A DNA stretch of 64,000 nt from Acetatifactor muris. GTDB taxonomy: Bacteria > Bacillota > Clostridia > Lachnospirales > Lachnospiraceae. Under the pieces are notes generated by a model. It was not told where the DNA came from. It saw only the letters and a list, made by a program, of their open reading frames with translations, and made no database searches. Both the position numbers and the translations under genes were made by a program. The stretch is taken from assembly GCA_023663635.1 (NCBI GenBank), contig JAMPHD010000002.1, positions 1 to 64,000 of the forward strand, given 5' to 3'. Of the stretch, positions 49,928 through 60,027 are shown piece after piece (positions within the stretch are counted from its first letter, which is position 1; each line of letters opens with the position of its first letter).

Positions 49928-50503
49928 ATGGACAGCAGGAAGTTTGGAGAATTTATAGCAGCGGTCAGAAAGGAGAAAGGATGGACGCAGGCAGAATTAG
50001 CGGAAAAATTGAACGTAACAGATAAAGCGGTTTCCCGATGGGAACGAGGATTGGGATTTCCGGACATTAACACCGTAAAACCGCTGGCGGATGCTTTGGA
50101 AGTCAGTGTATCAGAGATAATGCAATCTGAAAAAGATGTCAAAGAAGAACAGGACGGGAGGATAAATCGGATGAACAGATATAAAAATGCATTTCCCATA
50201 ATCATCTATGCGGGTAGTCTGGTTTTGCATACAATAAGCGCCGGGGATCTGATGTTGAGAACGCTAAGCATACTGCCGGTACTTATCTGCGGCGTATGCA
50301 TGGGGATCAATGTATGGAATTTGCCTCTTTCTCAAAGAAAGCAATGCGCGGCGGCCGAATTGCTGTTTTGTGTTATATCATTTTTGACAAGCTGCTTATC
50401 GGGATTTATGGGAAATATACTATCGTCCATATGCATCATTTTCGTAACCTGTGTGTATGTTTGCTTTGTTTCTCCAAAATTGCTGCAACGAAAGATACTA
50501 TGA
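49928..50503 (+). CDS. XRE-family regulator with C-terminal membrane helices
   Basis: The 191-residue protein begins with a Cro/C1-type helix-turn-helix (about 5-60; WTQAELAEKLNVTDKAVSRWERG, recognised from its TQxxLA..L.V...AVSxWE spacing) and ends in three or four hydrophobic segments (about 90-185). Membrane-attached XRE proteins of this size are common in Clostridia and may sense envelope signals. ATG 49928 follows GGGAGGG closely and begins the HTH. It is convergent to the array of small membrane proteins at 50575-52015, an arrangement suggesting it controls them, although its operator there is unproven. Confidence 0.85.
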   Translation: MDSRKFGEFIAAVRKEKGWTQAELAEKLNVTDKAVSRWERGLGFPDINTVKPLADALEVSVSEIMQSEKDVKEEQDGRINRMNRYKNAFPIIIYAGSLVLHTISAGDLMLRTLSILPVLICGVCMGINVWNLPLSQRKQCAAAELLFCVISFLTSCLSGFMGNILSSICIIFVTCVYVCFVSPKLLQRKIL

Positions 50504-50515
50504 TTGGTGAACGGA

Positions 50516-50542
50516 AGGGACTACCCAAAACAGGTAGTCCCT
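50516..50542. terminator. Perfect 10-bp hairpin between convergent genes
   Basis: AGGGACTACC (50516-50525) and GGTAGTCCCT (50533-50542) form a 10-bp perfect stem with a 7-nt loop between the XRE gene and the last small membrane gene. No T run follows on either strand, so it is not a standard intrinsic terminator, but position fits a bidirectional one. Confidence 0.55.
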
Positions 50543-50574
50543 CCATGTAACAACTTGCATCTAAATTAGAAATT

Positions 50575-50919
50575 TTAGGGGGATCTCCAGATAAGTTCTA
50601 TCAACTCATAGTGCCAATCCGACAGCTTAAACGGAATCAGCGCGCACACTGCCCCAACGATCAAAGTTGCCGGCACATCCCACCATCGCCACCCGGGTAT
50701 ACGCCAAAAACCATAGATCAAAGAGAGCAGCATTGCTATGGGAAACAAAAAAAACGGAAGTATAGCTCCGGCCATACAGTAAAATTCTATGTACCATGGT
50801 AATTGCACATCGGCAAGCCCGCCTCCAACGACCCATACCGTCATCAAGCCTATGTATTCACTTGCGCCCAGAATAAAAGCCACAACCCCCGGTATCGCGT
50901 AAAAAGTTTTCTTTGACAT
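50575..50919 (-). CDS. Small four-helix membrane protein, type A, copy 1
   Basis: This 114-residue protein is the last in a four-gene unit (52015 down to 50575). It has four hydrophobic segments, an MSKK start, LPWYIEFY in an outer loop, and PGWRWWDVP before the last helix. The same layout occurs in the products of 51309-51668 and 55291-55635: M(S/P)KKxxY, AFxxG, PWY, W(R/A)W(W/Q). The type-B neighbours are more distantly alike (W.AW...P.VG). No known family is recognised. Function could be immunity to the secreted lipase, or membrane stress. Confidence 0.75.
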   Translation of the reverse strand: MSKKTFYAIPGVVAFILGASEYIGLMTVWVVGGGLADVQLPWYIEFYCMAGAILPFFLFPIAMLLSLIYGFWRIPGWRWWDVPATLIVGAVCALIPFKLSDWHYELIELIWRSP

Positions 50920-50966
50920 ATTTGCCTCCCTCTAATTCTTACAAGTCCCTTTCCGTAATCTTGTGT

Positions 50967-51278
50967 TTAAACATGCCGCAAAGTTATGACCCACGGCAAT
51001 ATGCCCGGTATGATCCCGACGGGGAGAATGGCCAAAGCATGCCATGCTTTCCATCTTGTCACATGTTTCTCGCCATAAGGCCATGACAAATATATAATCA
51101 AAACATGCAAAACAAACACTATGGCAAACAGACCCAAGGAAATTTCCAACATACTGTCTGCCGATATTGCCATCGTGCTGCCTAATACCCATCCGTATGC
51201 CATCACTGATAATACCGACAATACCCCGCATCCTAAGGACAGAAAGCCTAATATTGTGTAAAACTTTATATGTGACAT
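50967..51278 (-). CDS. Small four-helix membrane protein, type B, copy 1
   Basis: This 103-residue protein has four hydrophobic segments, starts MSHIKFYTILGFLSLGCG, and has the cytoplasmic loop PYGEKHVTRWKAWHALAILPVG. The products of 51704-52015 and 55736-56053 share both blocks. AAAGGAA precedes its ATG at 51278. It precedes the type-A gene by 47 nt. A longer frame on the same strand upstream of 50967 is only overlap. Function unknown. Confidence 0.75.
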   Translation of the reverse strand: MSHIKFYTILGFLSLGCGVLSVLSVMAYGWVLGSTMAISADSMLEISLGLFAIVFVLHVLIIYLSWPYGEKHVTRWKAWHALAILPVGIIPGILPWVITLRHV

Positions 51279-51308
51279 ATACTGTTTCCTTTCTACTTAT
51301 GTTTCATT

Positions 51309-51668
51309 TCAAATCCTTATATCTCCCCAAAAAAGCCATAACAAACTTGAAAAAAGCACAAATATTCCAAAAGGCATTATTGCTCCTGCAATTCCTATTA
51401 CCGGTACAGCCAAAATGTCCTGCCACGCCCACTTCTTTACATAACGATACCCGCAAAACCATCCAATGCATATCGCGGCAATCAACAAAATAAACGGCAA
51501 AAGGAATAAAAGCAACCCCAAAACCATCACATACCAAGGCTCTGATTCTACCCTGGGCGAGCTATATGACATAAGCACCACAAAAACCATAACCCATGAT
51601 AAAATGCTCACTATTCCCAACCGGAAGGCTGTAATGCCCACTGCGGCATAATAAACTTTCTTTGGCAT
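51309..51668 (-). CDS. Small four-helix membrane protein, type A, copy 2
   Basis: The 119-residue type-A copy has MPKKVYYAAVGITAFRLG, EPWYVMVL and KKWAWQDI, and ends in a hydrophobic tail. ATG 51668 has AAAGGAA upstream. It lies 35 nt after its type-B partner (51704-52015), and 30 nt before the next type-B gene. Paired order B-A recurs three times in this locus. No known domain is recognised. Confidence 0.75.
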   Translation of the reverse strand: MPKKVYYAAVGITAFRLGIVSILSWVMVFVVLMSYSSPRVESEPWYVMVLGLLLFLLPFILLIAAICIGWFCGYRYVKKWAWQDILAVPVIGIAGAIMPFGIFVLFSSLLWLFWGDIRI

Positions 51669-51703
51669 ATCGCATTTCCTTTCTGCAAATGACATATGAT
51701 TCT

Positions 51704-52015
51704 CTAAATGCATAGTGACATAACAATCCAAGGAACTGCCGCAGCTAATGTACCGACCGTAGGGATTCCCCATACATGCCACACTTTCCAACACTTCACA
51801 TTCTTCTCTCCATAGAGCCAGGATAAATAAAGTATTGAACTGTAGATAATGATGGACAACGCAAACATACAAAGCGCCAAAAAGTAAATATTTGCATCCA
51901 ATATCTTAGTGGTGCTGTCTAATTGCCATCCACACAACAACACAGCTGTTACCGAAAGACAACTGCATCCAAAGGACAACACTCCCAAAATCGTGAAAAA
52001 TTTTCTATGTGACAT
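51704..52015 (-). CDS. Small four-helix membrane protein, type B, copy 2
   Basis: The 103-residue type-B copy has MSHRKFFTILGVLSFGCS and LYGEKNVKCWKVWHVWGIP. The start at 52015 has GGGAGG ten bases upstream; a longer frame starts in the promoter region. It is the first gene of a four-gene unit, 51704 down to 50575, with its own promoter at 52053-52081. The unit lies downstream of the lipase gene on the same strand. Confidence 0.75.
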   Translation of the reverse strand: MSHRKFFTILGVLSFGCSCLSVTAVLLCGWQLDSTTKILDANIYFLALCMFALSIIIYSSILYLSWLYGEKNVKCWKVWHVWGIPTVGTLAAAVPWIVMSLCI

Positions 52016-52052
52016 GCGCTGTTTCCTCCCTGCGCTATTGTAATTCCTTTTC

Positions 52053-52081
52053 ATGATAGATGCGCATGGTTTTTATGTCAA
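52053..52081 (-). promoter_or_regulatory. Promoter of the four-gene small-membrane-protein unit
   Basis: Minus-strand perfect TTGACA (52081-52076) is 17 bp from TATCAT (52058-52053), ahead of the type-B gene at 52015. A nearly identical layout, TTGACAT(A/G), occurs at 56088-56116 before another type-B gene. Confidence 0.7.
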
Positions 52082-52106
52082 GAATTTCCTGACCGAACCA
52101 TACACC

Positions 52107-55100
52107 CTAGCGGAACTTTCTGAGAATATAGTACAGCCATCTCCAAAAAGCAGTTCTGTCTTTGGGTTGCACGACAATGGTCACTTCCCGTACTGTTTCT
52201 TCAAACTGTCCATCCACCGCGGGCGCTACGATTCGGATGACTGCCATGCCCGCTCCTTTGATGCTGACCCTTCCCTTTTCCGATACCGTGACCACCCTCA
52301 CATCTGAAGATGTATAGAGCAGACGAGCCTGTGGATTGTTGCCGTTTCGGGCATTCAACAGAAAATCTCCGTCCCCGACCCGTTTGGTGATACAGTCCCT
52401 GCACAGGATCGTCTGTCGGAGTAATTCCACAGCGCTTTCCTCCTCATCTTCAAATGACTCCTCTTCCAAATCGCTGTCCTGCGCGCCATTGATCCACGGG
52501 GTATCATTTGCCCATGTATTTTCATTCGTCGTTTCTCCGGTGTTTGTTTCACCTGTATTTTCGGAGGAAGACTGTGTCGGACGTTTGCCCGTTTCCGTCC
52601 CGCCATTGTCGGAAGAGACGGAACCGGATGAGGTATTGCCCGCGGGAATTTCCTCCGAAGGGACGGGCGATTCCGACTCTACAGGATTTCTTTCCGGAGT
52701 GACAGGCGATTCCGACTCTATGGGATTTCCCTCCGGAGCGGCAGGCGATTCCACCTCATCGGAGTCCTCTGATCCGGACGCGGAGATCCGTTCATTGGCC
52801 GCTGCCTCCCATGTAAGGTTGATAATGCCGTCACCATCCTCATCAATCTCCAAAACCGTGGTCTCTCCTCTGCCCGTCCTCGTATGCATGACCGTATCCG
52901 CGGTCACGGGAACACCCTCAAAGGTTCTCTCATCTGTCAGATTATCCTCCTCATCAAAGAAACGGATCGTATAATCCATCACGCCTGTCCCGGTTCCCTG
53001 CAATAACACATCCATGTCCTCCGGGTCCAGACACAGCATCTTGATCTCATCCTCCGCCCCCAGAATGTCCAGACGCCCAAAGGAAGAGGCGATATTCAAA
53101 TTTTCTGCAGCAGAACACAGCGCCTCCGCCCCATCAGACACCGTGACATCTACGGGACAGGCCACCCTGATGACCGTATAGGGGGTAGCCTGCGGGGCGG
53201 CTCCCGTCACATCGGAAGAACCATACCGCAGAATGTCCGTGACCCAGGACACACAGGCGGGATCCTGAACAGTTCCCATATGGTTTGTGCTAAAAGTCTC
53301 CCAATGGTTGTCATGCCGGTTTTCCACCTGTTTCATAATAGTGGCTGATAAATAAGGAACTGTTCCATCACCCAAAATATCATATTTAAGATCGCTTTCA
53401 TATAATCGTTGATCAACATCATCATTTGTAAATTGAAATTTAATAGCTGTTATCGTCTTTTGATTAGTACCTATTACAAAATATGCGTTTTCGTAATTCC
53501 TCAATAGGTTAAAATTTCCTGTATATCCCTGTGTAAGCAAAGAATTTTGGAATACTTGTGCATTTCGATAATTTTGATCACCAAATATTCTTTTGCAGGT
53601 TTCCACATATTCCTCATATGACATTTTCCGATCCGCTATTCCAACAGGCCATACACTGTCTTTCCACATTTGAGTTTTAGGATGATTAACATAGTTTTGG
53701 GATGGCGTAAGTTCTACCACTCCTTGAAAAGATGTTTTAAGCTCCTTAGTCATCCCCCCGGCTGCCCCTAAAACAAAATCATAAAAAGTATTTGTATTAA
53801 CGGTAATACCCTCTCCCAATACATCCCAATTTTGTACACTATTAATAAGCGCAGGAGCACCTTCATAAGGAGTACCGCAGGTAATAATTTTGTCCACTCT
53901 GTCTTTATCGGCATATTTTGCATAATAACTGGATACAACTAAGCCTCCCATGGAATGGCAAAGCAAATCTACCTTATCGGCATCTAATTCGTCTATAAAA
54001 CTATTCAACTTGTCTGCACTGTCACCATTACTTTTTCTCCAATCATAACTAAAAAAATAGATTTCTCTATCAGGAAATGCATTGCATAGCTCATTTACAA
54101 TGACCTTGTAGACCCCTTGTGTTCCGTATTCTCTATCACCAATACTTAAAGAATTCTGATTTTTACAAGGAGGCACATATAGCTGATTTTCAGGAGCCAT
54201 ACGATTATTAATTCTTTCTATTCTATAAAGAGTTTTTATCGAATTTACCGGATCAGACCAATCTAATGGAGGATCCCACACTTGATTAGTTTGATCATAT
54301 GTCTGATTGCTAACAAACAACCGACTTCCCATAATTCCCGGGACTATGATAATGGGATGCTCGTCCACCTCAAAAGACTTTCCCTCACTTACAAGCCCTT
54401 CTATGTCAAAATCCTTTATCAGATGTCGGTTCATTCCTCCCCCGGTTGCCGCGGAGATTCCCAAATATATCTCATCCGGCAATAAGATTTCCCCACATGA
54501 CAGGAGCTCTTCTCCATCCAGAGACACCTTCAGAACGGAGTGTTCGTAACGGACAGACAGGGTATGCCATCCGCTACCGCTTACATCTCCACTGTCATCC
54601 ACTCTGTTATCTATTACATAATCCAAATGCTTTTGCACACTTCCCTGTACAATGGCCACATGTCTGCCATCGGGGTCCCCCGCATTGTGATAAGAATCCA
54701 GTTCCACGCCGTAGGCATCCTGCCCCACAAAGCCCAGATATCCGCCTTGAGGCCCCAGCCCCGGTTCCTTTGACATGGTCAGCAGAATACCATCAGCGCC
54801 ATAATAGGGCCCTGTATGACGTCCGCCTCCGGCCCAATAGGAAAAAGTCACCGTAAATCCGTTTCGGGCGCTGATCTGATGCCCATACCAGATACTGCCC
54901 GCCCGCCATGTGGCCAGTTCCGTCAGTTCAATGATTCCCTCCTCCAACCGAACAGCATCTCCGTACAAGAGCAGGTCATCCTCACCACATACCTGTTCTT
55001 CCTCGGCGCGTTCAAGCGAGAACAGGCTCATTCCCTCGCCGGAAGAAAAGCTTTCCTCCCGGGCCTCCTCAGCACTCGGAACAGATTCTTCCACAAATTC

Positions 55101-55214
55101 CGCGGGCTCGGTAGACATCATGCTTTCTTCATCCGTCTCCGCCGCATACACCTGCTGCGGGCAGCTCATAACAACCATGCAAAAGATCAGTAGTGACAAT
55201 ACCGTTTTTTTCAT
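52107..55214 (-). CDS. Secreted lectin-lipase (LCAT-like alpha/beta-hydrolase) with Ig-like C-terminus
   Basis: The 1035-residue protein has a signal peptide (about 1-25, ending AYAA-type), a Glu/Ser-rich spacer, an L-type lectin-like domain (about 105-270), and an LCAT-like hydrolase (about 284-665). The oxyanion region is VPGIMGSR (291-298), the nucleophile Ser421 is in CHSMGG, Asp616 is in GDGTVP, and His645 is in NHMG. A low-complexity Pro/Ser/Glu region with repeats (ESPVTPE) and a C-terminal BIG2-like module with no sorting signal follow. It should act on lipids or acylated glycans outside the cell. Residues about 299-625 lie in strongly AT-rich DNA. AAAGGAG precedes the ATG. Type-B/type-A gene pairs stand on both sides. 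Confidence 0.85.
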   Translation of the reverse strand: MKKTVLSLLIFCMVVMSCPQQVYAAETDEESMMSTEPAEFVEESVPSAEEAREESFSSGEGMSLFSLERAEEEQVCGEDDLLLYGDAVRLEEGIIELTELATWRAGSIWYGHQISARNGFTVTFSYWAGGGRHTGPYYGADGILLTMSKEPGLGPQGGYLGFVGQDAYGVELDSYHNAGDPDGRHVAIVQGSVQKHLDYVIDNRVDDSGDVSGSGWHTLSVRYEHSVLKVSLDGEELLSCGEILLPDEIYLGISAATGGGMNRHLIKDFDIEGLVSEGKSFEVDEHPIIIVPGIMGSRLFVSNQTYDQTNQVWDPPLDWSDPVNSIKTLYRIERINNRMAPENQLYVPPCKNQNSLSIGDREYGTQGVYKVIVNELCNAFPDREIYFFSYDWRKSNGDSADKLNSFIDELDADKVDLLCHSMGGLVVSSYYAKYADKDRVDKIITCGTPYEGAPALINSVQNWDVLGEGITVNTNTFYDFVLGAAGGMTKELKTSFQGVVELTPSQNYVNHPKTQMWKDSVWPVGIADRKMSYEEYVETCKRIFGDQNYRNAQVFQNSLLTQGYTGNFNLLRNYENAYFVIGTNQKTITAIKFQFTNDDVDQRLYESDLKYDILGDGTVPYLSATIMKQVENRHDNHWETFSTNHMGTVQDPACVSWVTDILRYGSSDVTGAAPQATPYTVIRVACPVDVTVSDGAEALCSAAENLNIASSFGRLDILGAEDEIKMLCLDPEDMDVLLQGTGTGVMDYTIRFFDEEDNLTDERTFEGVPVTADTVMHTRTGRGETTVLEIDEDGDGIINLTWEAAANERISASGSEDSDEVESPAAPEGNPIESESPVTPERNPVESESPVPSEEIPAGNTSSGSVSSDNGGTETGKRPTQSSSENTGETNTGETTNENTWANDTPWINGAQDSDLEEESFEDEEESAVELLRQTILCRDCITKRVGDGDFLLNARNGNNPQARLLYTSSDVRVVTVSEKGRVSIKGAGMAVIRIVAPAVDGQFEETVREVTIVVQPKDRTAFWRWLYYILRKFR
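53340..54320. other. AT-rich segment within the lipase gene
   Basis: The stretch reads visibly AT-rich (runs such as aaaatatcatattt and tataaagagttttta) against GC-rich flanks in the same gene. It matches residues about 299-625, the catalytic domain. Change points are estimated by eye, about 50-100 bp uncertain. It suggests domain replacement by recombination from a low-GC source. Confidence 0.7.
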
Positions 55215-55277
55215 AATAATCTCCTTTGTTATTTTAATTTTAAGTAATCTTTTTATCTTGTAAAATATTGCTTACCG

Positions 55278-55299
55278 TATTACCATACTATTACCATAC
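55278..55299. repeat. Perfect 11-bp tandem repeat at a gene end
   Basis: TATTACCATAC occurs twice head to tail (55278-55288, 55289-55299) across the stop codon of the type-A gene and into the 76-bp spacer before the lipase start. The spacer otherwise has no clear promoter. Confidence 0.6.
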
Positions 55300-55635
55300 A
55301 CCCAACATTTGAGTCGCCTTAATATATCCGGCCGCTATCGCTATCGGGAAGACAAAGGCCACCGTACCAACTGTCAACATCCCTATGGCATTCCACCATC
55401 TCCATCCCATCACCCATTTGTATCCGCAGACTAAGCCCAAAATCAGCAAAATAACAGGCGCAGCAAAGGGCAAGCACAACATAAGTATTTCAAAAACATC
55501 CACATACCATGGCACTTTAACCTGATTGAAATGCGACAAAATTGAAATAAACGCAAGAAACCACGATGTCCATACATACGCCCCAAATTTAAATGCCATG
55601 ATCGCAAACGACCCGTAATAAATTTTCTTTGACAT
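55291..55635 (-). CDS. Small four-helix membrane protein, type A, copy 3
   Basis: The 114-residue type-A copy has MSKKIYYGSFAIMAFKFG, VPWYVDVF and MGWRWWNAIG. The ATG at 55635 follows a purine-rich GAGGGGAGAG stretch; a GTG-like extension upstream is less likely. It follows the type-B partner by 100 nt and precedes the lipase gene by 76 nt. With its partner it forms a B-A pair transcribed from the promoter at 56088-56116, probably continuing into the lipase gene. Confidence 0.75.
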   Translation of the reverse strand: MSKKIYYGSFAIMAFKFGAYVWTSWFLAFISILSHFNQVKVPWYVDVFEILMLCLPFAAPVILLILGLVCGYKWVMGWRWWNAIGMLTVGTVAFVFPIAIAAGYIKATQMLGVW

Positions 55636-55735
55636 ACTCTCCCCTCTCACCTCTCCTCATCCTATACCGAAAGCACCCTTCACTCCTCAATCACCACACC
55701 CCGAACAGCGGCGCTAAATTAACACCTGCGTCTGC

Positions 55736-56053
55736 TCATGCGCGCATGAATAAAAGCGCCAACACCCAGGGAATCGCAGCTGCCGCCACTCCGACCACGG
55801 GAATCCCCAACGCGTGCCAAGCTTTCCATTTCGCCACATGTTTCTCACCGTACAGCCATGCCAGAAAAAGCATGACCAATGTGATCAGTACAGACAAGCC
55901 AAATAAGTATAGTAAAATAAGCATCGGAATCACCTCTGTCGTCTCCACGGAAATCCCTGTGATCCAACATGGCAACAGCAGCGACATCAACGACAATACC
56001 CCGCATCCCAAGGACAAAAATCCCAATATCGTATAAAACTTTGTATGTGACAT
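55736..56053 (-). CDS. Small four-helix membrane protein, type B, copy 3
   Basis: The 105-residue type-B copy has MSHTKFYTILGFLSLGCG and WLYGEKHVAKWKAWHALGIP, close to the copy at 50967-51278. Its ATG is at 56053. The promoter at 56088-56116 has a consensus -35. It is the first gene of the unit containing a type-A gene and probably the lipase. Confidence 0.75.
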   Translation of the reverse strand: MSHTKFYTILGFLSLGCGVLSLMSLLLPCWITGISVETTEVIPMLILLYLFGLSVLITLVMLFLAWLYGEKHVAKWKAWHALGIPVVGVAAAAIPWVLALLFMRA

Positions 56054-56087
56054 ATGTATCCCCCAAAATTTTGCGTAATTGGCTTTT

Positions 56088-56116
56088 AATATAGCAAACC
56101 ATCACCTTCATGTCAA
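56088..56116 (-). promoter_or_regulatory. Promoter of the B-A-lipase unit
   Basis: Minus-strand perfect TTGACA (56116-56111) is 17 bp from TATATT (56093-56088), 34 bp before the ATG at 56053. Sequence and spacing match the promoter at 52053-52081. Confidence 0.75.
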
Positions 56117-56138: not shown

Positions 56139-56182
56139 TAAAAACACAGCCCTGTTCCACACAATAGTGAAACAGGGCTGTG
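56139..56182 (-). terminator. Intrinsic terminator after the lipoprotein gene
   Basis: In the minus-strand transcript CACAGCCCTGTT (56182-56171) pairs perfectly with AACAGGGCTGTG (56156-56145), a 12-bp stem with a 14-nt loop, followed by TTTTTATGGCTTTTTA. It lies 12 bp past the stop of the lipoprotein gene and separates it from the next promoter. Confidence 0.9.
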
Positions 56183-56194
56183 CATATTGTCCTT

Positions 56195-57709
56195 TTACAG
56201 CAGATCCGGCGTCCACTCCACATCCACGTCATTTCCGCCGTCTCCGGAATTGTCCGATCCGCCGCCCGAACCTCCGCCGTCATCCGAGTTTCCATCGTCC
56301 GAACCGCTGTTATCCGGAGGATTGTCCGGACCGCCATTGTTCCCGCTGTCGCCGTCATTATCGTCATCATCCGGCACCGGAGCCGGAGCCGGCGTTGCGG
56401 GAGTGGCGGGCGTCACGGAAGGCGCCGGTTTAGAGGGCGCAGACGGTGTCGGCTTAGAAGGCGCGGGCGCAGACGGCGTCGGTGTGGAGGGTTTGGCCGA
56501 GGGAGTCTGCGGGTTCGGCAGCGCGATACCCTCCGGGTCTGTTCCCTCCTTCTGCATGGACGCGTCCGTCTGCCTCTTCCACTCGTCATAGACCCTGAAC
56601 GGATCCTCTCTGCAATACTCTTCCACACTGCCCAAGGCTACCCAAGTGTCACCCGAAAGCCATTGAATTTCTCCGTCATACACCCGAATCTGCGGGGATT
56701 CACTCTCCTTCCCGGAATCCTTGGAAACGGCCACAGGGGTATAGGGAGTAAATTCGGGACGGGAATCCAAGGCTCCGGCAAACTGCTCCAATTCACCCGC
56801 TCCCTCCTCATCGGCCTGCGCCGTGTAGGTTTTGTATTCCCTGTCTTCCCTGCCGTTCCACAGATCAAAGGGATCCCCCGGCGCGCTGCCCTGACAGATA
56901 TCCAGAGAATATTCGCCCGTGTAAATACCCTGCGCAAAAACTCCCTGTTCCTTATAAATGCTGCCCGTGATACTGTCCAGCACCCACAGGGTAAAGGGGC
57001 CGTCATAGTTTCCGTCCGCAAGTGTCGTCTCCATCACCTGTACATTTCCGTCTATGGCCTTCAGCACGGTCACATTGTCCTCTGAGCCATAGTACCACAC
57101 GGTGGAGTAAGACCGTCCCTCTCCGTCATATCCCGCGCGGATGACCAGTCTGACTCTGTCATTTTGCTGCACAAAATAATTTCGCGATCCCTCCGCAAGC
57201 TTGGGCATCATGTTCTGAAACCACTCGTCGCTGCCGATCAGATGTATGCCCTCGTTCAGATATCCCGGCGTCTCCAGATTCTGCAGCATCAGTTCCGCGT
57301 CCTCCCGCACACTCGGATCCTCTTCCACATTGACATACAGTTTCTGCAGGGGCTCAAACGCGGCGCTGTCGTCAAACAACCGATAACTCTGTTCCAAAAG
57401 GTCCCGCTGACGGCGGATCATTCCCTGCTCTCCATAGAGGGCGGCCAAGGCCTGATAGTCCTCCATGGTAAAAGTTCCCGTGGCGTATTTGATCTCATAA
57501 TCCCGTATGGCCTGTTCCGTCTCAGACAATTCTTCCTTGGAAGATGCCGCCGTGGAAGTGGGCAGATCCGAAAGATCATAGTCCGGTCCCTCACGTCTTC
57601 CCATGCCCGCGCATCCCGTTAAAACAATGGCACACAAAATACAAATGCCCAATCCGACTGTCTTATTTTGCTTATCCTGTTTTATTTCCAAATGTGATAA
57701 TTTCTTCAT
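56195..57709 (-). CDS. Secreted lipoprotein with low-complexity C-terminal tail
   Basis: The 504-residue protein has a lipobox, VLTGC, with Cys33 after a basic and hydrophobic signal. Residues about 60-150 are helical and TPR-like (DYQALAALYGEQG). The following 200 residues are beta-rich and include a twice-repeated pattern of extracellular beta strands with no known name. A Pro/Ser/Thr/Ala-rich stretch (about 400-440) leads into a Gly/Asp/Asn/Ser-rich acidic tail. GGGGAGG precedes the ATG at 57709, and the gene follows the glucosaminidase gene by 19 nt. It may be a wall-associated partner of the glucosaminidase. Function unknown. Confidence 0.75.
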   Translation of the reverse strand: MKKLSHLEIKQDKQNKTVGLGICILCAIVLTGCAGMGRREGPDYDLSDLPTSTAASSKEELSETEQAIRDYEIKYATGTFTMEDYQALAALYGEQGMIRRQRDLLEQSYRLFDDSAAFEPLQKLYVNVEEDPSVREDAELMLQNLETPGYLNEGIHLIGSDEWFQNMMPKLAEGSRNYFVQQNDRVRLVIRAGYDGEGRSYSTVWYYGSEDNVTVLKAIDGNVQVMETTLADGNYDGPFTLWVLDSITGSIYKEQGVFAQGIYTGEYSLDICQGSAPGDPFDLWNGREDREYKTYTAQADEEGAGELEQFAGALDSRPEFTPYTPVAVSKDSGKESESPQIRVYDGEIQWLSGDTWVALGSVEEYCREDPFRVYDEWKRQTDASMQKEGTDPEGIALPNPQTPSAKPSTPTPSAPAPSKPTPSAPSKPAPSVTPATPATPAPAPVPDDDDNDGDSGNNGGPDNPPDNSGSDDGNSDDGGGSGGGSDNSGDGGNDVDVEWTPDLL

Positions 57710-57728
57710 CCAATTCCTCCCCTGTCTC

Positions 57729-59948
57729 TCACTGCGCGTCAGCTATGAGCTGTCTCAAAAACGCGTCCGCGTCCGAACCCTCCGGATAAGTGCCCATGTT
57801 CAGCACCTGTTCCGCCAACGCGTAGATGCTCTTGGCCATCTTGGGCCCGTAGACGATGGTCGTCACGCCGTCCTTCTCCAACACCGCGTATCCGCGGAAC
57901 GCGTATTCGACCCGATACTGATCGGGCGGCAGTCCCACGAGCACGGAGGTAAAGCGATGTCTTCCGTCCACGGTCTCATATACTTTATCCTCCCACGCGC
58001 CGCTCTCATTGATTCCATAGGCGATTCCGCTGATGACTTTCTCCCCGCCTTTGACCATGGGATACTGCGCGCTGTTGGCATTGTTCATGACCAAAGTGCC
58101 GTATTCCTTCAGCACATATCCGTTCACGCCCTCAGAGGTCAGGACATCTCTCAGTTCCGCGGAAATACCCGTCTTGAAACGGATACCGGATTTGCCCGTG
58201 ATCCGGATGGAGAATCCGTGGTAGGTCAAAAGATTCACAAGCTGCGGCTGCTCCGTGGCCACATAGGCGTTGTTGCGATATTCCAAAGTCCACAGATACA
58301 TACCTGTGGGGACGCCGTTTTCATTGTACTGATAGACCACGGCATTTCCCATCTGCCCGTTGGGAGCCGTCACGATATATCGGCCGTTACGGACTGCCGG
58401 CGCATAGGGAAGGCCGTCCAGCCAGACCGTGGTGTCATAGCCCGCGGGAATCTGCAGCACCACATTGGTGGAGTAGGTGGGCATGGCACAGTTGCTCCCC
58501 GGCATGTTGCGATAGACCGGTATCCGGAAAGTAAAGGGGCTGTCCAACGCGCCGGCATCCCTGTAGATCTGCCAGGTGCTCCTCCCCTCCGTGTAAGCTG
58601 CCGACACATTCTGCATATACTGGTGTCCGTAGGTGCTGTTGGTGGTCACATTAAATTTTTGCAGATATAAGGTGTCCTGCCCCCGCTTGATATAGTTGCG
58701 CGATATGGTATCGGCGCCGCCCAAGATGGACCAATAAGCGCTGGTCCACCCCTGCGCGCGGGCATACTCCAGTCCGTTTACAATGACCTCATCGCCTCTG
58801 CCGGTGGCCCCCACATTAAAGTAATTATACAAATTTTCATACCCGGGGTAAGTTCCGGAGATCAGGGGAGAAGTTCCCTGCCCCTGCTCCTGGCGAACGC
58901 GCGCCGCCAGATGATAGGGGCTGACCTTTGACCCCTCCGCCACGGCCACGGCCCAGAAAATGGTAGAGAATGTCATATCCGTCCCGGGCGCGTTTTGGCT
59001 GTCATTCATAAAAGTATTATTCAGAAAGATATCCAAGGCCTCTTTGGTGTGAATGCTCTCATTGTAGACCAAATGCTCAAATTGAAAAATGGCGTCCTCG
59101 GTTAAGAAATTGCGGGGATCCATATAATATTTCAGCGCGTCCTCCGACACATAGTACCAGTTGCTGTCATAGGCTCCCTCCTTGGTATAGTCGCCGAAAG
59201 TCCTGTAGATCAGATTCTTGCTGCCTCCGATCTCATTGGCAATGACGGTATTCCAGTCGAGCTGCGTATCCATGGCGATGAACTGCCAGTTGGGATGCAG
59301 GGCTTTCAGCTGTTTGAGCGCCTCCCTGTAGCTCTCGGGGAACTGTTCCATCTCCGCGTTTGCCAGAGCATCCGCCGCGAGCGCAATGCCGGGATTCATA
59401 TTGTAAGTCTCCTCCCACGCAAGAAAACGCTCATCGGAACAGGCCAGATACTCCCTTTGCACATAGCCCCGATATTCCATGTCATGGTCATACAGACTCA
59501 CATAAGCCCATACGCTGTAGCCGTCCTCCTCCACGGAGAGCGCCACATCCTCGATCAGCACGGACTGACCCCCCGGCACATTCAGCACGACCTCACCGTC
59601 AGAGGAGGCCTCCGCCCGCACGGGGCACGTATCGCAGAGATAGATCAGAGCCAACACGGACTGCTCTGCCGTCAGCTCCGCCAATGCCTCCCTCGCCTCC
59701 CGAATCAGCTCGTTCACATCCGAATCCGTCATCCCGTCCCCGGCATATGTCTCCTCCGGCCCGGATACGGACTCCTGCGGCGCGGGAGCCGAAATCTCTG
59801 TGTTATGCTCCATACCGGCGGCATATGCCGTCATGGAGGAAATCGGGGTAAGGACCAAGGCCATAAAAACCGCCAAACATCTGCGCCAAAACTCTCCCTT
59901 TATTCCGATCCTTCCGGGTCTCTTATCAAATCTTTTATATTGCATCAT
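57729..59948 (-). CDS. Secreted SH3-glucosaminidase (LytG/GH73-like)
   Basis: The 739-residue protein has a basic N-terminus, a signal peptide with hydrophobic CLAVFMALVL and AYAA cleavage, an SH3-like wall-binding domain (about 98-168) and a beta-N-acetylglucosaminidase domain (about 180-470) with FPESYREALKQL, HPNWQF and HLAARVRQEQG. The C-terminal 230 residues form beta-rich modules. It should cut peptidoglycan glycan strands. The start is uncertain: the longest frame begins at 59999 within the -10 element, so I use ATG 59948; a GTG at 59957 has GGAG four bases before it. It is first in a two-gene operon with the lipoprotein, ending at 56139. Confidence 0.85.
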   Translation of the reverse strand: MMQYKRFDKRPGRIGIKGEFWRRCLAVFMALVLTPISSMTAYAAGMEHNTEISAPAPQESVSGPEETYAGDGMTDSDVNELIREAREALAELTAEQSVLALIYLCDTCPVRAEASSDGEVVLNVPGGQSVLIEDVALSVEEDGYSVWAYVSLYDHDMEYRGYVQREYLACSDERFLAWEETYNMNPGIALAADALANAEMEQFPESYREALKQLKALHPNWQFIAMDTQLDWNTVIANEIGGSKNLIYRTFGDYTKEGAYDSNWYYVSEDALKYYMDPRNFLTEDAIFQFEHLVYNESIHTKEALDIFLNNTFMNDSQNAPGTDMTFSTIFWAVAVAEGSKVSPYHLAARVRQEQGQGTSPLISGTYPGYENLYNYFNVGATGRGDEVIVNGLEYARAQGWTSAYWSILGGADTISRNYIKRGQDTLYLQKFNVTTNSTYGHQYMQNVSAAYTEGRSTWQIYRDAGALDSPFTFRIPVYRNMPGSNCAMPTYSTNVVLQIPAGYDTTVWLDGLPYAPAVRNGRYIVTAPNGQMGNAVVYQYNENGVPTGMYLWTLEYRNNAYVATEQPQLVNLLTYHGFSIRITGKSGIRFKTGISAELRDVLTSEGVNGYVLKEYGTLVMNNANSAQYPMVKGGEKVISGIAYGINESGAWEDKVYETVDGRHRFTSVLVGLPPDQYRVEYAFRGYAVLEKDGVTTIVYGPKMAKSIYALAEQVLNMGTYPEGSDADAFLRQLIADAQ

Positions 59949-59997
59949 CCGTATCACACATCTCCATTTCCGATCCCTTATCTTTCGGTTTCGTTTC

Positions 59998-60027
59998 ATT
60001 ATATCATACTTGTTCTACATTTGACAC
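59998..60027 (-). promoter_or_regulatory. Promoter of the glucosaminidase-lipoprotein operon
   Basis: Minus-strand GTGTCA (60027-60022, 4/6) lies 18 bp from a perfect TATAAT (60003-59998), with TG at the extended position (TGATATAAT). The -10 covers the first ATG of the open frame, which supports the downstream start. Confidence 0.55.

What the first reader, a model, noticed from the sequence alone, without database searches (positions are those of the whole stretch)
50575..56116. Three B-A pairs of small membrane proteins surround a secreted lectin-lipase
Six genes for 103-119 residue, four-helix proteins fall into two types. Type B starts MSHxKF(Y/F)TILG and has LYGEKHVxxWKAWHALGIP. Type A starts M(S/P)KKxxY with PWY and WxWW. 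They are ordered B-A, lipase, B-A-B-A on the minus strand, and two units have near-identical promoters. A large secreted hydrolase stands between the copies and a membrane-anchored XRE regulator faces them. Repeated small membrane genes beside a secreted enzyme look like immunity or self-protection against a lipase effector. Bacteriocin-type immunity arrays and lipase effectors with membrane immunity are known, but I know no such system of this composition. Function is inference.
Basis: partly seen in the sequence, partly recalled or inferred. Interest (0 to 1): 0.78.

Follow-up and report, generated by a model that had tools for sequence, protein, structure and literature searches.

The report
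Orphan membrane-gene pairs flank mosaic lipase
A gut-type bacterium carries an apparently imported stretch of DNA in which a patchwork secreted fat-splitting enzyme is flanked by three pairs of related small membrane proteins found in no other genome searched; they may protect the cell from that enzyme, but nothing yet proves the link.

Summary
Six real genes (103-119 aa) lie at the stated place as three B-A pairs around a secreted lectin plus LCAT-type lipase. B and A are ancient paralogues of one another, so this is one gene family expanded six-fold. They are predicted to have three membrane helices, not four; the promoters are similar, not near-identical; the XRE gene is convergent and belongs to a common, unlinked family. 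No relative of B or A was found in 138 genomes of the genus, 397 of the family, 398 of the phylum, a pattern scan of about 85,000 species genomes, plasmids or viral contigs. The stretch is A+T-rich and sits just past a conserved gene pair in a surface-polysaccharide locus, where relatives carry toxin-antitoxin-like genes, unknown genes or nothing. The lipase is a mosaic: its catalytic core has the five lowest-GC3 blocks of 298 in the window. Lipase relatives lack B/A, so the link cannot be tested by co-occurrence. Best guess (about 0.35): an immunity-like membrane protection array in a toxin-type island. Rivals: co-resident unrelated membrane complex, or lipase accessory. Interest moderate.

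The parts
55736..56053 (-). B1: 105-aa membrane protein, first of unit 1
55291..55635 (-). A1: 114-aa membrane protein (119 aa if the upstream GTG is used)
52107..55214 (-). secreted lipase, 1035 aa: signal peptide, L-type lectin (about 79-272), LCAT-like alpha/beta hydrolase (about 285-655; predicted Ser421, Asp616, His645), C-terminal module (660-828), linker, Ig-like-type module (929-1021)
53235..54377 (-). A+T-rich catalytic core of the lipase, apparently of other origin than its flanking modules
   Evidence: GC3 0.17-0.40 against 0.45-0.65 in the rest of the gene; the five lowest of 298 60-codon blocks in the window
51704..52015 (-). B2: 103-aa membrane protein, first of unit 2
51309..51668 (-). 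A2: 119-aa membrane protein
50967..51278 (-). B3: 103-aa membrane protein, first of unit 3
50575..50919 (-). A3: 114-aa membrane protein
56088..56116 (-). promoter-like site of unit 1 (TTGACA-17-TATATT)
52053..52081 (-). promoter-like site of units 2 and 3 (TTGACA-17-TATCAT)
56144..56183 (-). intrinsic terminator of the preceding lipoprotein gene; upstream edge of the island
   Evidence: z -6.8
50512..50545 (-). strong hairpin between A3 and the convergent XRE gene; probable terminator, downstream edge of the array
   Evidence: z -3.6
49928..50503 (+). XRE regulator with C-terminal membrane helices; common family in the genus, link to the array not supported

Best explanation
The stretch 50.5-56.1 kb is a horizontally acquired, self-contained island in a hypervariable spot of a Lachnospiraceae surface-polysaccharide locus. 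It encodes a Sec-secreted, lectin-guided LCAT-type lipase and an array of three B-A pairs of paralogous three-helix membrane proteins. The most likely role of the array is protection at the producer's own membrane, as in arrays of non-identical immunity genes: the lipase, or another membrane-active agent carried by related strains, attacks lipids of rival cells, and each B-A pair, probably working as a heteromer in the membrane, protects against one variant. Shown: genes, homology, A+T-rich composition, mosaic lipase, variable spot, catalytic motif. Inferred: horizontal origin, heteromer, protection, antibacterial target.
For: Six diverged paralogues kept as intact ordered pairs under purifying selection; two transcription-like units bracketed by hairpins, the first of which (B1-A1-lipase) puts a pair 77 bp upstream of the lipase in the same direction; low GC of the whole stretch against about 55% around it; the same spot in congeners holds XRE plus ImmA-like, MqsR/MqsA-like or Fic/Doc genes, unknown genes, or nothing; lipase catalytic residues conserved; best solved relative of the lipase profile is 4r1d chain A, Tle4, an antibacterial lipase with an immunity partner; catalytic domain apparently exchanged between host-like modules, as in polymorphic toxins. 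Precedents from papers: TslA/TilA, a lipase toxin with multi-copy immunity genes (PMC10730906); tandem membrane TsaI genes next to tspA (PMC9484751).
Against: No relative of the pairs anywhere searched, so no co-occurrence. Lipase relatives do without them. Exposed loops of about 10-15 residues leave little surface for blocking a 40-kDa enzyme domain. Known lipase immunity proteins are extracytoplasmic lipoproteins or globular proteins, not three-helix pairs. A Sec-secreted lectin-lipase in a gut bacterium may simply digest host or dietary lipids. The three toxin-antitoxin-like cases at the spot have no background rate for comparison.
Confidence: 0.35

Rival explanations
1. Passenger reading: the pairs form a lineage-specific membrane complex of unrelated function (for example envelope or lipid homeostasis) that was amplified in the same island; the lipase is only a neighbour used for digesting lipids.
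For: No co-occurrence with lipases elsewhere; lipase modules (lectin here; S-layer-type or other surface modules in relatives) suit a surface enzyme; the array's second unit has its own promoter-like site.
Against: The lipase lies inside the array, in the same direction, and downstream of B1-A1 without a strong promoter of its own; six-fold expansion of one small gene family beside one enzyme needs some reason.
Confidence: 0.33
2. Lipase accessory: B-A pairs help the lipase fold, cross or stay at the membrane, rather than protect against it.
For: B1-A1 precede the lipase in the same direction; small membrane partners of secreted enzymes are known in general (own knowledge: lipase foldases).
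Against: One enzyme would not need three diverged pairs; the lipase has an ordinary signal peptide; relatives of the lipase lack any such partner.
Confidence: 0.14
3. The small proteins are themselves membrane-active agents (holin-like or bacteriocin-like), the array being a toxin rather than a protection store.
For: Small, very hydrophobic, five of six cationic, tryptophan-rich; genes at the same spot in relatives are partly toxin-antitoxin-like.
Against: No leader or cleavage site, no exporter beside them, a conserved loop motif predicted cytosolic and multi-helix topology more like resident membrane proteins.
Confidence: 0.1

Closest known systems
TslA/TilA of Staphylococcus aureus (lipase toxin with immunity lipoprotein family; PMC10730906)
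   Same: Lipase beside a variable number of immunity-gene copies on an island
   Different: TslA is exported by the type VII system with helical partners; TilA is a lipoprotein that binds the enzyme. Here the lipase has a Sec signal and a lectin, and the candidates are three-helix membrane proteins of an unrelated, unnamed family
Tandem tsaI (DUF443) membrane immunity genes next to tspA in S. aureus (PMC9484751)
   Same: String of non-identical membrane-protein paralogues beside a secreted toxin gene
   Different: TsaI counters a membrane-depolarising toxin, not a lipase; single type of protein, no B-A pairs; no Pfam match here
Tle4-Tli4 of Pseudomonas aeruginosa (PDB 4r1d)
   Same: Closest solved structure of the lipase catalytic profile (E 4.7e-11)
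   Different: Type VI effector; immunity partner is a soluble protein, not a membrane pair (own knowledge); similarity covers mainly the region around the catalytic serine
Two-peptide bacteriocin immunity proteins such as LagC (PMC8538875)
   Same: Small membrane immunity proteins
   Different: LagC has four transmembrane domains and counters small peptides; no sequence link was tested beyond the family libraries, which gave none

Membership tests
Immunity-gene array | Tandem, non-identical paralogues | tested here: met
   six homologous genes, B-B 44-48% and A-A 28-30% identical
Immunity-gene array | Adjacent cognate secreted toxin | tested here: inconclusive
   Secreted lipase is adjacent, but its toxicity is unknown
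Immunity-gene array | Co-occurrence with the toxin family across genomes | tested here: not met
   No relatives of the pairs found; lipase relatives lack them
Immunity-gene array | Protects producing cells | not testable with these tools
   Needs expression or deletion experiments
LCAT-like lipase (PF02450) | Profile match above the curated cut-off and conserved Ser-Asp-His | tested here: met
   38.9 bits against a cut-off of 21; Ser421, Asp616 and His645 invariant in the six aligned enzymes
Type VII lipase toxin TslA | Helical targeting domain at the C-terminus with small helical partners, no Sec signal | tested here: not met
   N-terminal signal peptide and lectin, other C-terminal modules
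TilA / TsaI / known immunity families | Match to a curated family model | tested here: not met
   No Pfam, NCBIfam, PHROGs or PADLOC match near threshold for any of the six
Paired small multidrug transporters | Four helices, conserved glutamate in helix 1, SMR family match | tested here: not met
   Three helices, no acidic residue in helix 1 of the B proteins, no family match

The most novel reading that the evidence does not exclude
A two-component membrane immunity system: B and A form a heteromer that shields the producer's membrane from a lectin-targeted, Sec-secreted phospholipase, with three diverged pairs covering lipase variants, in a family of proteins with no known relative.
Probability: 0.17. 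Interest if true: 0.68.

Novelty: new variant of a known kind. Interest (0 to 1): 0.42.

Why it matters
Sec-secreted lipases with dedicated immunity are little known in gut Clostridia. If the pairs protect against the lipase, they would be a new protein family and a new membrane-embedded way of resisting phospholipase attack, and the variable spot would be a place to look for further antagonism genes. Even if not, the locus is a clear case of a species-restricted gene family that expanded six-fold beside a domain-swapped enzyme.

Tried and rejected
Family libraries for the six small proteins: nothing near threshold. Weak hits of the profile in congeners and in the phylum were read and are noise: out-of-frame stretches, parts of large transporters, frames with stops. 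Foldseek of the B1 model: best E 2.7, no relative. Solved-structure sequence search for the six: nothing. AlphaFold2 of the lipase core gave pLDDT 45 and was not used for a fold search. XRE as dedicated regulator: rejected as unsupported, since close HTH relatives sit beside many unrelated genes. Small multidrug transporter pair: rejected (helix number, no acidic residue in helix 1 of the B proteins). Recent gene conversion between B1 and B3: not supported, synonymous sites differ (pS 0.73).

Full report
What is there. Six ORFs of 103-119 residues lie on the minus strand at 50575-56053, in the order B1-A1, lipase, B2-A2-B3-A3. B proteins are 44-48% identical to each other, A proteins 28-30%. 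So the array descends from one gene that first split into B and A, and the pair was then copied. Non-synonymous change is well below synonymous change for the B genes, with synonymous sites close to saturation, so these are old, selected proteins and not chance frames. A has diverged faster than B.

Topology. Hydropathy gives three segments in most of the proteins, and an AlphaFold2 model of B1 (six-sequence alignment, mean pLDDT 72, pTM 0.51) gives three helices, 3-31, 41-72 and 78-104. Charges suggest that the N-terminus and the conserved loop after helix 2 (G-x-K-x-V-x-x-W in B) are inside, and the short first loop (with PWY in A) and the C-terminus outside. The 'four-helix' description is therefore probably wrong. 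Foldseek found no similar solved structure.

Transcription. Promoter-like sites with a perfect TTGACA box stand before B1 and before B2 and the surrounding 47 bases are more alike than shuffles (30 against 17.5 +/- 2.0), yet about a third of the bases differ. Nothing similar precedes B3. A strong terminator hairpin ends the preceding lipoprotein gene and another hairpin separates A3 from the convergent XRE gene. The simplest reading is two messages: B1-A1-lipase and B2-A2-B3-A3. This is inference.

The lipase. P0007 has a signal peptide, an L-type lectin domain (E 6.5e-21) and an LCAT-type alpha/beta hydrolase (E 8.4e-10), followed by a module shared with von Willebrand-type surface proteins of other genomes of the family (660-828) and an Ig-like-type module (929-1021). 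Ser421, Asp616 and His645 are invariant in six aligned relatives. Its profile's best solved relative is chain A of 4r1d (E 4.7e-11), followed by bacterial lipases, lysosomal phospholipase A2 and LCAT; 4R1D is the Tle4-Tli4 complex (PMC5611513). The catalytic core is foreign to its own flanks: GC3 is 0.17-0.40 between residues 301 and 660 and 0.45-0.65 elsewhere, and the five lowest blocks of 298 in the whole window are all in this core. The compositional edges fall on the domain borders. The lipase thus looks like a domain-swapped mosaic.

The island. GC falls to 41-52% over 50-56 kb against about 55% around it. The gene pair to the right (a 756-aa and a 504-aa secreted protein, 56195-59999) is conserved in congeners, so I fetched ten of these loci. 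What follows the pair differs: polysaccharide genes directly in G458, G459 and G461; an XRE plus ImmA/IrrE-like pair in G441; an MqsR-like plus antitoxin-like pair in G022; a Fic/Doc gene in G531; three genes of no known family in G437; other genes elsewhere. The B/A-lipase stretch therefore occupies a hypervariable spot. Three of ten cases with toxin-antitoxin-like genes is suggestive, without a background rate.

Distribution. The six-protein profile found nothing convincing in 138 genomes of the genus, 397 of the family and 398 of the phylum; the best of the weak hits were read and are noise. A pattern scan for B over the species-genome collection, tblastn of B1 in plasmids, and scans for B and A in viral contigs found nothing. 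The genome itself has only these six copies. The family to which the genome belongs is Lachnospiraceae, judged from congener G413, whose contig 15 has the same length (54385) and the same genes as a contig titled Lachnospiraceae bacterium SIG331.

Is the lipase linked to the pairs? Proteins matching any part of the lipase occur in few family members (6 of 298 others), and relatives of the core occur more widely in Ruminococcus, Synergistaceae and others. None of these loci has a B/A relative (positive control passed). Among 18 lipase loci examined for neighbouring paralogues, one (G244) has two 91% identical, membrane-anchored 239-aa proteins directly downstream of its (interrupted) lipase gene, and one (G413) has a membrane-anchored protein resembling the lipase's own C-terminal part. 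These are the kind of partner expected for a lipase toxin, but two cases prove nothing.

The regulator. The XRE gene's DNA-binding part is common in the genus, and its closest relatives, with a similar three-helix tail, sit beside many different genes, none of them B or A. It may simply be another passenger of the variable spot.

Judgement. The arrangement resembles known strings of non-identical immunity genes: TslA with TilA copies (PMC10730906) and tspA with tandem membrane tsaI genes (PMC9484751). I give immunity-like protection about 0.35, an unrelated membrane complex 0.33, a lipase accessory 0.14 and self-acting membrane agents 0.10.

Noticed in passing
window 53235-54377 (-): The lipase catalytic core is compositionally foreign (GC3 0.17-0.40) between host-like lectin and C-terminal modules; the borders coincide with domain borders, as if the catalytic domain had been exchanged.
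   Followed up: partly
L088, L091, L092, L094 beside the conserved pair equivalent to window 56195-59999: The spot after this conserved gene pair is hypervariable in the genus and carries XRE/ImmA-like, MqsR/MqsA-like and Fic/Doc genes or an unknown three-gene module.
   Followed up: partly
L052:5796-7401: Two tandem, 91% identical, membrane-anchored proteins of about 239 aa without family match lie directly downstream of an interrupted VWA-LCAT lipase gene (G244); possible immunity duplicates.
   Followed up: no
L058:12989-13525: A membrane-anchored 178-aa protein is 42% identical over 132 residues to the C-terminal part of the nearby 1114-aa lipase (G413), like a detached copy of the enzyme's accessory domain.
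   Followed up: no
L053:1059-4949 and L055:7166-10384: Multi-domain surface proteins with a von Willebrand-type domain and an FHA-type end that share the 660-828 module of the window's lipase.
   Followed up: no
window 49928-50503 (+): XRE regulators with three C-terminal membrane helices, a near-constant DNA-binding part and a variable membrane part form a common family in this genus (two more HTH matches in this genome).
   Followed up: partly
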